Source: Bryoerythrophyllum caledonicum
Taxonomy: Eukaryota > Streptophyta > Bryopsida > Pottiales > Pottiaceae
Assembly (NCBI GenBank): GCA_963971425.1
Contig: OZ020515.1
Span: 15,640,291 to 15,704,290 of the forward strand
Length of the DNA stretch: 64,000 nucleotides
Direction of reading: 5' to 3'
Part shown: positions 2,808 to 7,440 of the stretch, in pieces
Position numbering within the stretch: position 1 is the stretch's first letter
How the letters are laid out: each line of letters begins with the position of its first letter
The notes under the pieces: model-generated
Databases searched by the model: none
The model's input: only the letters and a program-made list of their open reading frames with translations
What the model was told of the DNA's origin: nothing
Position numbers and translations under genes: made by a program

Positions 2808-3122
2808 TCAGTGCTTAATTCGATCACGCTCCATAGCAAAAAGAGCTGGGGGAAGTGTTTTATGTTGTAGCTTGTACAAGACTGGACCGTCTTCCCACAC
2901 ATCGCTAACAACTTGAGCCAGGTCCGGTTCCTCATCCGTTGCCAAATTAGGCAATATCGATGCGGAGCCAGACATCAAGGTGAGATAAGCCGCTGCATGC
3001 CACCCCGACACTTATTCTCTGTCACAGTTTCCATGCCATCTAGCACCAGTCAAATCCTCCTCCGAAGGACTTCGATTGCGAGATAGACCATCCACATCCA
3101 AGTTCATGATGTCGGCCCAATG
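2808..3122 (-). pseudogene. RNase H end and linker of gypsy pol
   Basis: The minus strand shows the end of the RNase H domain, with the gypsy-type motif DVDGLSRN followed by an acidic linker, and leads towards the integrase block. The stretch is cut at its upstream side by the Tc1 transposon, whose TA target duplication lies at 3123-3124. Related gypsy sequence is seen on the far side of the transposon. Confidence 0.7.
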
Positions 3123-3124
3123 TA

Positions 3125-4074
3125 CAGTGGGGTGACATTCAAATTGGCGTTTGGGCAATTCCAGGGATGGTGTCCCACACTGCTGCCAACTTTGACGCCC
3201 TCTACAGGGCTCAAAAATTGTTCTTTTATCCTGAAATTTTGGGAACAACATCACCTCTATGTTAAAAACATGCATACCAAATTTCAAGTCCAGAGGACTT
3301 ATAATACAAAAGATATTAAAAATTAACCACCATGGGGTAGCTGTGAGAAAAGTTTCTCAACCGCCAACTTTGACACCATCCCAAGGATTGAGGAAATTTT
3401 TTTTGCCCATGGAATTTTTGGAGTGAGAACACCTATATGTTGATTACATGTGTGGAAATTTTCAAGTCCAAAAAATGCACCAAAAAATCACATCCCAAAT
3501 CTACCAACATGTGTAATTGTGAGAAAAAAAAGGGAAAAACCATTTTACTACTTCCAACTTTGACACCCTCCCTAGGATTGAGGGTTTGTTATTTCAACAT
3601 GAAATTTTTGACACATGGTAACCTTTATGTTGATAACATGTGGGAAAATTTTCAAGGCCAAAAAATGTATTCAAAAGAAGATATTCAAAATCTACTAACA
3701 TGGGGGTTAGTTGTGAGAAAAGTTTCACAGCTGCCCACTTTGACACCCTCCCAAGAATTCAAAAAAAATTATTTGTCCATGAAATTTTGGGTATGAAGTC
3801 ACCTTCACGTCAAATACAAGTGTGGAAAATTTCAAAATCCAAAAGATTTACACAAAAAAACATATACCAAGTCTACCAACATGTATTGTTGTGACAAACA
3901 AAGGGGAAAGTTTACCACTACTTCCAACTTCAACACCCTTCCTAGGATTGAGTTTTTGTTGATACATAATGAAATTTTGGCCACAAGATCATCTCTATAT
4001 TGGTAACATATGAGATAGATTTCAAAGCCAAAAGATGTATATACAAAAAAAAAATTATTCTATATCTACCAATG
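3125..4074 (+). repeat. Left TIR of the Tc1-type element, five direct repeats
   Basis: It pairs with 5888-6835 in reverse complement. Internal units start at about 3180, 3362, 3551, 3731 and 3921, each with ccaactttgacacc near its start and a later match to tgtgagaaaagttt or a variant. Tandem direct repeats inside each inverted repeat recall the IR/DR layout of some Tc1 elements, where such repeats bind transposase, but with five units instead of two. The open frames here are non-coding artefacts of the repeat. Confidence 0.9.
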
Positions 4075-4479
4075 TTTGTAACAATGAGAAACTATATTGA
4101 AGGGGCATATTGAGAATGTCAAATTATCTTTGACACCTCGTACTCTTCATTGATTTTATTCATGTGACTAAGCTACCAAACATAAATGCATCTTGAAAAG
4201 ATCAATGAAATCTACATGTAGAATTGCAGAGTTGTTTTGTGTAGAAGAATCCACTTGTCATAAGGTTTGGTGTACATTATGCACGTATGACGAGTTTTCT
4301 CCTCCAAATATCTGTTGAGCACTATGTAAAGGAAATGTTGTGTGTATTTTGTCATGTGATTTGTAATAGAGTGAATGTTGAGATGGTATTGAGAGTGAAT
4401 GTTGAGATGATATTGAGTGGACATATTAGATATGGGCTGAGTGTTGTTGACTGATTGAGTAGACAAATCACATATGGGC

Positions 4480-4730
4480 TAATCCATTGAGTGGGCATAT
4501 CACATATGGGCTGATCCATTGAGTGGGCATATCACATATGGGCTGATTTATTGAGTGGATATATTTTTTTTTTGGTTGAGTGTTGTTGACTAGTTTACTG
4601 AGTGTTGACGAATCACATGTGGCATGAGTATGTCCAAGAGTATTTTTTGGTTCACTCAATTGATGCACATGCCATGGTTATCATCTAATGCACATGCCAT
4701 GGTTATCACCTAATGCACATGCCAATGTGA
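4480..4730 (+). repeat. Minisatellites upstream of the Tc1 transposase
   Basis: Roughly 32-bp units containing catatcacatatgggctgat repeat three to four times at 4440-4560. A shorter unit containing tgcacatgccatggttatca repeats at 4665-4715. Both lie between the left TIR and the transposase start, where a promoter would be expected. Confidence 0.75.
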
Positions 4731-4889
4731 CTGTTATGTTGTTGATTGATTTATTTAGTGCACATGCCATAAGCTGAGTCCTTTGTGTTTACTGAATTAT
4801 ATAATCCAATTGCCATAGGTTGAGTGTTATATTGATTACTTATTGAAGAGCATTTAGTATTGTATCAACATCATAAAAAATAGTCTACA

Positions 4890-5897
4890 ATGGCAGTTTC
4901 AGATGAAATCCGTGCTCGCATTACAGGTTTGAGTGAGGGAGGAAATACAGGAGTTCAAATTGCAGCCATTATCGGAGTTTCTGTTAGAACAGTTCAGAGG
5001 TTAGTAAAAACGTTTAAAGAAGATGGAACTTATAAGCGCAAACCTTGCGGTGGAAGTCACGCTAAAAAACTTAGTGAGAGAGATGTGAATAATATTGTGC
5101 ATTATGCAAAAACTCATCGTCGTTCCTCGGTCTCAGAGATTACTAATATGTGCCGTACTCAAGTGTGTAGACGTACTATTCAAAGGGTATTACATAAAAG
5201 TGGTATTTTTAGTCGAATTGCAGTCAAAAAACCTTTCTTGACATCCCATCACATGTCTCAACGGTTAGCTTTTGCTCAGAAGTACCATGGATGGAGTCCA
5301 AAAGAGTGGGAGCGTATTGTTTAGACAGATGAATCTACTTTTGAGATTGGAAAAAGTTTTCGGCAAATTCATGTTTGGAGAAGTGCATATGAGCGTTATT
5401 CATCAAGTTGTATAGTTCCTACTTTTAAAAGTGGACAGACATCTTTGATGATTTGGGGTGCATTTGCTAGAGGACAAAAGTCACAACTTGTCTTTATGCC
5501 AAAAACTCAACGTTCTGCTAAAGATTTTGTTGAAGTGGTCTACGATGGCGAATTGATTCATTTCTTGAGTAGACTTCCAGAAGGAGTGCTAATGAAAGAT
5601 GGTGCACCTGTTCATCATAGCAAAACATGTGAAGAATGGAGACAAACCCACCAACTCAAAAAGCTCAATTGGCCTGCAAACTCTCCCGATCTCAATCCAA
5701 TCGAGAATGTCTGGAGGATGCTAAAAGATGTTGTCCAACATGGCAAGGAATGCCCTAGAAACTTAGAAGTGATGAAGGTAGTTCTTGAAAAAGAGTGGAA
5801 TTTGGTTAGTGGTACAAAGCTCCTTCAACTATGTCATTCTATGCCCTCAAGGTTACAAGCGGTGATTGATGCTAATGGAGGACATACACGTTGGTAG
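4890..5897 (+). pseudogene. Tc1-type DD34E transposase, one internal stop
   Basis: One frame of 335 codons encodes a Tc1-family transposase, which cuts and pastes the element by binding its TIRs. The N-terminal third is a bipartite helix-turn-helix region (AAIIGVSVRTVQRLVKTF, then a basic KRKPCGGSHAKKL linker similar in place to the GRPR hook). The catalytic core shows TDESTF (first Asp), MKDGAPVHHS (second Asp) and SPDLNPIENVW (Glu). There are 34 residues between the second Asp and the Glu, hence DD34E, a Tc1 spacing rather than the DD39D of typical plant mariners. A TAG at 5322-5324, just before TDESTF, is the only break seen. The length matches the family (about 340 residues). The start was chosen as the first ATG ahead of the HTH. 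Confidence 0.92.
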
Positions 5898-6835
5898 ATA
5901 TGGAATAATTTTTTTTGTATATACATCTTTTGGCTTTGAAATCTATCTCATATGTTACCAATATAGAGATGATCTTGTGGCCAAAATTTCATTATGTATC
6001 AACAAAAACTCAATCCTAGGAAGGGTGTTGAAGTTGGAAGTAGTGGTAAACTTTCCCCTTTGTTTGTCACAACAATACATGTTGGTAGACTTGGTATATG
6101 TTTTTTTGTGTAAATCTTTTGGATTTTGAAATTTTCCACACTTGTATTTGACGTGAAGGTGACTTCATACCCAAAATTTCATGGACAAATAATTTTTTTT
6201 GAATTCTTGGGAGGGTGTCAAAGTGGGCAGCTGTGAAACTTTTCTCACAACTAACCCCCATGTTAGTAGATTTTGAATATCTTCTTTTGAATACATTTTT
6301 TGGCCTTGAAAATTTTCCCACATGTTATCAACATAAAGGTTACCATGTGTCAAAAATTTCATGTTGAAATAACAAACCCTCAATCCTAGGGAGGGTGTCA
6401 AAGTTGGAAGTAGTAAAATGGTTTTTCCCTTTTTTTCTCACAATTACACATGTTGGTAGATTTGGGATGTGATTTTTTGGTGCATTTTTTGGACTTGAAA
6501 ATTTCCACACATGTAATCAACATATAGGTGTTCTCACTCCAAAAATTCCATGGGCAAAAAAAATTTCCTCAATCCTTGGGATGGTGTCAAAGTTGGCGGT
6601 TGAGAAACTTTTCTCACAGCTACCCCATGGTGGTTAATTTTTAATATCTTTTGTATTATAAGTCCTCTGGACTTGAAATTTGGTATGCATGTTTTTAACA
6701 TAGAGGTGATGTTGTTCCCAAAATTTCAGGGTAAAAGAACAATTTTTGAGCCCTGTAGAGGGCGTCAAAGTTGGCAGCAGTGTGGGACACCATCCCTGGA
6801 ATTGCCCAAACGCCAATTTGAATGTCACGCTACTG
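5888..6835 (-). repeat. Right TIR of the Tc1-type element
   Basis: This is the reverse complement of 3125-4074, with the same five-unit substructure. Differences are few and mainly single bases, for example at the outermost tip where the left arm reads CAGTGGGGTG and the right arm CAGTAGCGTG. The high identity suggests recent insertion, or arm-to-arm homogenisation. Confidence 0.9.
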
Positions 6836-6837
6836 TA

Positions 6838-7440
6838 CAACCTCAAAGTCATGCTCTTAAAGCAACAAAGCCAACTTGACAAGCCTGCCAATAGCACATC
6901 AACGTGGGAAATGCCCTCCAAGTGAAACCAACGTGGTTCACCACCGCCAATGGTGGCTTGTCATCCTTGATAACCTCCGTGAAAACGAGGTGGTCGTCCA
7001 AGATGTCATTGATCTCACGGTGCACGAGCCGTTGCTCTAGAGGAAGTGCACAAGTGAGCGTCGTCGATGATGCCATCTTGGTCTAAATTCAACGTGGCCG
7101 ATGGGCGTTAGAGCCCAACGCCGTGGCATCAACAAATGTGGGGGGCCAAGAAGGTGATGGATGTATGCCCCATCCTTACGCACCTTCGTTCATGTATTCC
7201 CCAATGGATGTACATTCTCAAAAAGTACCTCGGTGGCATCGATTGGTGGATAGTCCACCACTCAATGAGCTTGAGCAAATCTGCAAAGAGACTTGACCGT
7301 GGATCATCCAAGCCACATTCACTCTCTGCCCGTGAATGGCCTTGGCAAGGCCATCCGGCAATCACGAATTTACGTGACCTGATGGACGCAAATCATCCTC
7401 AGTTTAATATTGACTTTAAGTATTGACTATAAACAACAAC
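6838..7440 (-). pseudogene. RT/RNase H remains of the gypsy element
   Basis: On the far side of the Tc1 element the minus strand carries decayed coding sequence. The part next to the insertion fits the RNase H region of Ty3/gypsy pol; further upstream the similarity fades. The TA pair at 6836-6837 duplicates 3123-3124. The stretch up to about 7440 has open frames on both strands, but only the minus strand makes sense in context. Broken; parts beyond RNase H are not assigned with certainty. Confidence 0.5.

What the first reader, a model, noticed from the sequence alone, without database searches (positions are those of the whole stretch)
3125..6835. Tc1-type DD34E transposon in a plant, with giant repeat-built TIRs
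The transposase motifs give a DD34E spacing, a Tc1 hallmark, whereas known plant mariners are mostly DD39D. The TIRs are about 950 bp, each made of five ~185-bp direct repeats, compared with two binding sites in ordinary IR/DR Tc1 elements. TA flanks and CAGT tips confirm the ends. It lies inside a plant-type gypsy relic, so contamination is unlikely. This could be an undescribed plant Tc1 lineage, perhaps gained horizontally.
Basis: partly seen in the sequence, partly recalled or inferred. Interest (0 to 1): 0.8.

Follow-up and report, generated by a model that had tools for sequence, protein, structure and literature searches.

The report
Moss Tc1 transposon with giant arms
This is a recently multiplied cut-and-paste jumping gene of the Tc1 type in what is most likely a moss, a kind already reported from mosses, but with unusually long ends built from five repeated blocks, whose two copies within each element appear to keep copying each other.

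Summary
Window 3125-6835 is a complete Tc1-type DD34E element with a TA duplication, inverted arms of about 950 bp and five 178-190-bp repeats per arm. It is one of many: 138 of 150 scored N-terminal transposase matches in the same genome are at least 90% identical, and all 20 further copies read carry long arms on both sides. The host is most likely a moss (LEAFY gene). Plant DD34E elements, moss ones included, were published in 2014 and a fungal origin for them was suggested in 2020, so 'undescribed plant Tc1 lineage' fails as a category claim. New here: (1) arms about 29 times longer than those of the published moss elements (33 bp), with a conserved 16-bp core every 178-190 bp and a probable inverted copy at the tip; (2) homogenisation between the arms of each element (own arms differ at 3.9 sites, arms of different copies at 13); (3) insertion into TGTACA (288 of 324 exact tips), which each insertion recreates at both edges; 11 head-to-head junctions; (4) a sister family with three repeats, 590-bp arms and CAAT tips. 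Best reading: a cut-and-paste Tc1 element whose arms evolve together by gene conversion. Horizontal origin could not be tested.

The parts
3125..6835 (+). complete Tc1-type element, 3711 bp (family 1)
   Evidence: 20 further copies of the same build
3123..3124 (.). TA target duplication, left (inside TGTA)
   Evidence: empty site
6836..6837 (.). TA target duplication, right (inside TACA)
   Evidence: empty site
3125..4075 (+). left terminal inverted arm, five repeats
5888..6835 (-). right terminal inverted arm, five repeats; its inner end overlaps the last codons of the transposase frame
3131..3153 (-). probable tip copy of the core in inverted orientation (GGTG....TCAAA-TTGGC)
   Evidence: (on copy L052): alignment of the tip to reverse-complemented repeats, shuffled-tip p 0.026 or less for 6 of 8 repeats and 0.07 for 2; the repeats are not independent of each other
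3186..3201 (+). core CCAACTTTGACRCCCT, repeat 1 (putative transposase site)
   Evidence: sequence; core defined
3364..3379 (+). core, repeat 2
   Evidence: sequence
3554..3569 (+). core, repeat 3
   Evidence: sequence
3734..3749 (+). core, repeat 4
   Evidence: sequence
3924..3939 (+). core, repeat 5
   Evidence: sequence
6759..6774 (-). core, right arm repeat 1
   Evidence: read off the sequence
6581..6596 (-). core, right arm repeat 2
   Evidence: read off the sequence
6392..6407 (-). core, right arm repeat 3
   Evidence: read off the sequence
6212..6227 (-). core, right arm repeat 4
   Evidence: read off the sequence
6022..6037 (-). core, right arm repeat 5
   Evidence: read off the sequence
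4368..4724 (+). internal short tandem repeats (24-, 32- and 25-bp units) between left arm and gene
4890..5897 (+). DD34E transposase frame, 335 codons plus stop, one internal stop (TAG 5325-5327) in this copy

Best explanation
A cut-and-paste Tc1-like (DD34E) DNA transposon that multiplied recently in a moss genome. Shown: structure, TA duplication inside TGTACA, many near-identical copies, mostly open transposase frames among those examined, private mutations that look neutral, and arms of one element that resemble each other far more than arms of different elements. Inferred: the transposase (two helix-turn-helix domains) binds the tip and the conserved core of each repeat, so each arm is an array of sites instead of the usual two or three; the two arms of an element are repeatedly homogenised by gene conversion, which keeps both arms equally built and lets a gain or loss of repeats in one arm pass to the other. 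Insertion into TGTACA recreates TGTACA at both junctions (TGTA-CAGT and ACTG-TACA), so later elements can land exactly at the edge of earlier ones.
For: Transposase: HTH_Tnp_Tc3_2 and DDE_3; Sleeping Beauty catalytic domain E 1e-27 and a Tc3 transposase chain E 2.8e-5 with the family profile. Copies: 138 of 150 scored matches at 90-100% identity over the N-terminal 144 residues. Open frames: 15 of 19 frames of 1005 nt; the window's is one of the four broken ones, and L055 and L056, not of that length, were left out. Target: TGTA on the left of 20 of 21 copies, TACA on the right of 20 of 20 (L047, whose right end that script misplaced, also has it); genome-wide 288 of 324 exact tips. Arms: over columns 1-950 of 20 copies (19 fetched plus the window; L047 dropped), own left-right 3.90 differences, left-left 12.75, right-right 13.19, left-right of different copies 13.00; 0 of 10000 permutations as low; 36 of 40 arms nearest to their own partner, ties counted. 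Private changes: 67 in both arms of one copy against 7 shared by two arms of different copies. Star model: about 3.2 homogenisations per site since the copies split. Core: best 16-column block of 8 repeats from two families, 1 of 2000 column permutations as good. Private substitutions 82 nonsynonymous, 6 to stop, 27 synonymous, ratio 0.90. Arms of both families are built alike on both sides. Head-to-head junctions: 11, about 2-4.5 expected.
Against: No binding, expression or mobility data. The 20 copies were picked by me from the best hits, not at random, which favours young and open copies. The expected deficit of conversion near the arm ends is weak (Fisher p 0.039, zone limits chosen after seeing the data). 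The excess of head-to-head junctions rests on a TGTACA density from about 97 kb and an assumed 89% TG share for the sister family. The conversion rate assumes a star-like history. Arm homogenisation was tested in family 1 only. The core could be conserved by repeat homogenisation rather than by binding, and the column permutation does not allow for that. Some copies have lost a catalytic residue (L045).
Confidence: 0.8

Rival explanations
1. The inner repeats are passengers: a satellite-like block that got into the arms and was copied to both sides by conversion, with only the tip needed for transposition, as in the short-armed moss elements.
For: Published moss elements have 33-bp arms and multiplied well (PMC4054914). 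Repeats are 60-78% alike within an arm. The sister family has three instead of five repeats and more exact tips (754 against 324).
Against: One 16-bp block is conserved through all 8 repeats examined of two families while the rest drifts, it recurs at 178-190-bp steps in both families, and the tip seems to carry it in inverted form.
Confidence: 0.35
2. Arm identity is set during transposition, for example by mismatch repair when the two arms pair with each other in an excised single-strand or hairpin form, not by conversion in the chromosome.
For: Long inverted arms can pair. Both-arm changes are private to each copy, which fits repair in the lineage of each copy.
Against: One-arm changes are relatively commoner near both ends of the arms (20 of 53 against 13 of 67), which fits chromosomal conversion needing matched flanks better; weak evidence. 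Long TIRs attracting conversion has been proposed for Galileo (PMC3573991, passages) and inferred for a Wolbachia insertion sequence (PMC3004938, passages).
Confidence: 0.15
3. The arm similarity is an assembly or polishing artefact.
For: The sequencing method of this unnamed assembly is unknown; inverted repeats of about 1 kb can be mis-polished.
Against: 53 one-arm private changes are preserved beside the 67 both-arm ones, and polishing towards a pool would make arms alike across copies, not within one copy.
Confidence: 0.07
4. A young horizontal gift from fungi (or another non-plant) into this moss lineage, which would explain the burst. This concerns origin and can be true together with the best explanation.
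For: Suggested for PpTc1 and PpTc2 in P. patens on a tree (PMC7466625, section 16). Family 1 is young here (arms differ by about 1.4% between copies).
Against: Untested here. A second family with 82-83% identical transposase and a shared arm plan implies some history of the lineage, inside this host or elsewhere.
Confidence: 0.3

Closest known systems
PpTc1 and PpTc2, Tc1-like elements of the moss Physcomitrium patens (PMC4054914; PMC7466625)
   Same: DD34E, CAGT tips, TA duplication, transposase of about 338 aa with two HTH domains, moss host, recent burst with many similar copies
   Different: 1,584 and 1,709 bp long with 33-bp TIRs, against 3.65-3.76 kb in most copies and about 950-bp arms here; no repeat-built arms described in the parts read. 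Sequences could not be compared because no tool holds them
IR/DR Tc1-like elements (Sleeping Beauty, recalled; Bari1 and Bari3 with three direct repeats, PMC4120734 passages)
   Same: Tc1 transposase with inverted ends carrying repeated (putative) binding sites
   Different: two or three sites per end there; five diverged repeats of 178-190 bp per end here, and the probable tip copy of the core is inverted
Galileo (Drosophila, P superfamily; PMC3573991 passages) and Foldback-type elements
   Same: long, internally repetitive TIRs whose length changes; recombination and conversion of long TIRs proposed
   Different: unrelated transposase; here the likeness of the two arms of one element is measured across 20 copies
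TCp3.2, a Tc1-like element with TIRs of about 756 bp found in a granulovirus (recalled from memory; no call shows it)
   Same: Tc1-like with very long TIRs
   Different: recalled only; repeat build not known to me and host differs

Membership tests
Tc1-like (DD34E) family | D-D-E triad with 34 residues between second D and E | tested here: met
   counted on the translation; D147, D237, E272 of alignment A1. Triad kept in 18 of 19 family-1 frames (L045 has N for the first D); in A1 the sister copy L058 has K for the E
Tc1-like (DD34E) family | bipartite HTH DNA-binding domain plus DDE domain related to Tc1-type transposases | tested here: met
Tc1-like (DD34E) family | TA target duplication | tested here: met
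   20 of 20 copies with both ends placed by the script; empty site of the window copy
Tc1-like (DD34E) family | CAGT tips | tested here: met
   both ends CAGT in 17 of 21 copies; L040, L041, L043 and L055 have a single-base change at one end (L047). The sister family ends in CAAT
PpTc1 / PpTc2 | about 1.6-1.7 kb with 33-bp TIRs | tested here: not met
   3.65-3.76 kb in 19 of 21 copies, arms about 950 bp, against the published figures
PpTc1 / PpTc2 | transposase sequence in the same clade | not testable with these tools
   PpTc sequences are not held; no plant or fungal protein collection
IR/DR Tc1 elements | two or three direct-repeat sites per end | tested here: not met
   five repeats per arm; three in the sister family, so the sister falls at the edge of the range
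IR/DR Tc1 elements | repeats bound by the transposase | not testable with these tools
   only conservation of a 16-bp core
PlantMar (DD39D plant mariners) | D as third catalytic residue after 39 residues | tested here: not met
   E after 34 residues

The most novel reading that the evidence does not exclude
Mosses host a previously undescribed Tc1 branch in which each end is an array of nucleosome-spaced (178-190 bp) transposase sites, the two arms are kept alike by gene conversion hundreds of times faster per site than mutation (about 470 times under a simple star model), and each insertion recreates its own TGTACA target at both edges, so that the elements seed chains of insertions. Nucleosome spacing is speculation from the step length alone.
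Probability: 0.25. Interest if true: 0.6.

Novelty: new variant of a known kind. Interest (0 to 1): 0.42.

Why it matters
It turns a scattered idea (long inverted ends of transposons attract gene conversion) into a measurable case: well over a hundred young copies, each with two arms that can be compared with each other and with other copies. With the published moss elements it shows that Tc1 ends in mosses range from 33 bp to about 950 bp, which bears on how many transposase sites a Tc1 end can use. For annotation it warns that arm identity cannot be read as the age of such an element.

Tried and rejected
A search for relatives in viral and prokaryote contigs found none (63 and 35 pattern matches, none confirmed). 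A tree against fungal, animal and plant transposases was not possible: no such proteins are held. Naming the host failed: a table of 16 moss species has one of similar size, Sphagnum divinum at 439 Mb, but with N50 17.5 Mb, whereas contigs here reach 20-65 Mb. No paper was found for TGTACA with target site and Tc1 (0 papers), or for Tc1 with moss and the phrase long terminal inverted repeats (0 papers); these are word searches of open papers only. Contamination was rejected because listed copies lie on 13 of contigs C1-C15. Chains by active targeting were rejected as unneeded: reuse of the recreated TGTACA would give about 2-4.5 of the 11 junctions seen, and the rest of the excess is too uncertain to build on. 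The empty-site alignment worked for L062 only; L063 lay on the other strand and was not turned, so its alignment is meaningless. Structure prediction was not run.

Full report
Observation. The element lies at 3125-6835, exactly as reported. The left flank reads ..AATGTA and the right flank TACAAC... The arms run 3125-4075 and 5888-6835 and are 99.2% alike over 951 columns. Five direct repeats start 178, 190, 180 and 190 bp apart in the left arm. The 335-codon frame 4890-5897 has a helix-turn-helix part (HTH_Tnp_Tc3_2, E 2.1e-16) and a DDE_3 part (E 2.8e-15), 34 residues between second D and E, and one stop in this copy. The catalytic part matches Sleeping Beauty SB100X (E 3.2e-21; E 1e-27 with a profile of seven copies), and a Tc3 transposase chain matches the N-terminal part (E 2.8e-5).

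Host. The genome that holds the window has 437,360,962 bases in 894 contigs. Of the five solved LEAFY-like chains matched by one exon of its best LEAFY gene, the closest is 4bhk (FLORICAULA/LEAFY HOMOLOG 1; that it is from Physcomitrium patens is recalled) with 242 bits against 174 for the next, 101 of 107 residues identical by my count of the printed alignment (another exon gives the same order). So the host is most likely a moss. That it is not P. patens is inferred from contigs of 20-65 Mb, which do not fit that species' many smaller chromosomes (recalled).

Copies. Of 150 scored matches to the N-terminal 144 residues (2,925 first-look candidates), 138, the window included, are 90-100% identical and 12 are 83-84%. 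I read 20 further copies, chosen by me, so not a random sample. All 20 have long arms on both sides. In L047 the right arm has an internal deletion of about 160 bp; the script therefore placed its right end wrongly, although an intact tip with TGTACA is there, and L047 was dropped from the arm counts. Lengths are 3653-3763 bp in 19 of 21 copies; L051 is 5322 bp, with about 1.6 kb of extra DNA between left arm and gene, and L047 is the other exception. Of 19 frames of 1005 nt, 15 are open; the window, L044, L048 and L053 hold stops; L055 and L056 have other lengths and were left out. Private substitutions in the 19 are 82 nonsynonymous, 6 to stop and 27 synonymous, a ratio of 0.90 per site, as expected for decay without selection after a burst.

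Target. In 20 of 21 copies the left flank is TGTA (L042 has AGTA), and in 20 of 20 the right flank is TACA. Genome-wide, 324 exact tips TACAGTAGGGTGACATTC exist, and 288 of them are preceded by TG. The window's own tips carry changes and are not among them. Of 40 matches to the joined flanks of the window copy, 38 span the join, that is, are empty sites in related retrotransposon copies at 84-88% identity; the one alignment usefully viewed reads ATGTACAACC (L062). Because the element starts with CA and ends with TG, insertion into TGTACA leaves a TGTACA at each edge. Eleven exact head-to-head junctions of two related tips exist: 9 join a CAGT tip to a CAAT tip, one joins two CAGT tips, one two CAAT tips. 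The two tips differ by one transition, so single tips may be misassigned. From the TGTACA density in about 97 kb I expect 2.0-4.5, so reuse of recreated sites explains part of them, and any further attraction is unproven.

Arms evolve together. In 20 copies (19 fetched plus the window), columns 1-950 of the arms differ at 3.90 places within an element, but at 12.75 (left-left), 13.19 (right-right) and 13.00 (left-right) between elements; none of 10,000 permutations of partners reached the observed value, and 36 of 40 arms are nearest to their own partner, ties counted. Private changes sit in both arms of one copy 67 times, against 7 shared by two arms of different copies; one-arm private changes number 53 in columns 1-950. 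Left and right differ consistently (frequency difference 0.35 or more) only at columns 952-960, the inner edge. Without exchange, own arms should differ as much as arms of different copies. A simple star model gives about 3.2 homogenisations per site since the copies split, some 470 times the mutation rate. Both-arm changes are relatively rarer in the outer 100 columns at either side (13 of 67 against 20 of 53 one-arm changes; Fisher p 0.039, limits chosen afterwards). The sister family was not tested for this.

Repeat plan and sister family. The sister (L058, L059, L060; transposase 82-83% identical) is about 2.78 kb in the two copies measured, has arms of about 590 bp with three repeats and tips CAATAGGGTGAC, and has 754 exact tips. 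Repeats 1, 2 and 5 of the window family (copy L052) match repeats 1, 2 and 3 of the sister (L058) best (84%, 86% and 83%), so a two-repeat block was lost or gained in both arms alike. The best conserved 16 columns over the eight repeats read CCAACTTTGACACCCT in most (mean conservation 0.96 against 0.70 overall; 1 of 2000 column permutations as good), at arm positions 62, 240, 430, 610 and 800 in one family and 62, 240 and 430 in the other. The tip resembles this core in reverse.

What is known. Liu and Yang 2014 (PMC4054914; parts 1-3 of 5 of the text read) described DD34E Tc1-like elements in P. patens with CAGT tips, TA duplications and 33-bp TIRs, and Tc1-like sequences, mostly fragments, in nine flowering plants. 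PMC7466625 (passages and section 16) placed the moss ones near fungal elements and suggested transfer. Bari elements carry three repeats per end (PMC4120734, passages). Galileo authors proposed that long TIRs attract recombination and conversion (PMC3573991, passages), and TIR exchange with conversion was inferred for a Wolbachia insertion sequence (PMC3004938, passages). A survey of 5,158 elements describes the DD39D PlantMar family and notes none of it in bryophytes (PMC7325037, passages). I found no report of a plant Tc1 element with arms like these in ten word searches of an open-access library; most listed papers were seen as listings only.

Judgement. The element is a genuine and well-preserved Tc1 family of a known kind in a known kind of host. 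Its arms are the interesting part, and the within-element homogenisation is the best supported new fact. The horizontal-transfer claim remains open. The checks before this submission corrected counts and one misread end; they did not change any odds.

Noticed in passing
L058 1295-4075, L059 1295-4074 and 754 exact tips genome-wide: Sister Tc1 family whose tips read CAAT instead of the usual CAGT, with more exact tips than the family in the window.
   Followed up: partly
L041, L043 and L055, flank right of the element: Directly behind the TA lie further CA-starting sequences (CAGTGGGGTACAG.. in L041; CAATACC.. in L043, CAATATC.. in L055); in L043 and L055 sequence 71-73% like the arm follows about 55 bp further on, suggesting at least a third related family sharing the target.
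   Followed up: no
L035 (contig C821) against L036 and L037 (C590, C894): Two different plastid-type rbcL genes (464 of 482 residues identical between L035 and L037) with differing accD neighbours: perhaps a second bryophyte's plastid in the assembly, or an old transferred copy.
   Followed up: partly
L051 (G000:C12:8380840-8389240): A family-1 copy carrying about 1.6 kb of extra DNA between left arm and gene.
   Followed up: no
window 2975-3124 and 6838-6959: The element sits in a decayed repeat, by its reading frames a gypsy-like retrotransposon, present in many copies; 40 best-scored matches were returned from 1,140 candidates.
   Followed up: partly
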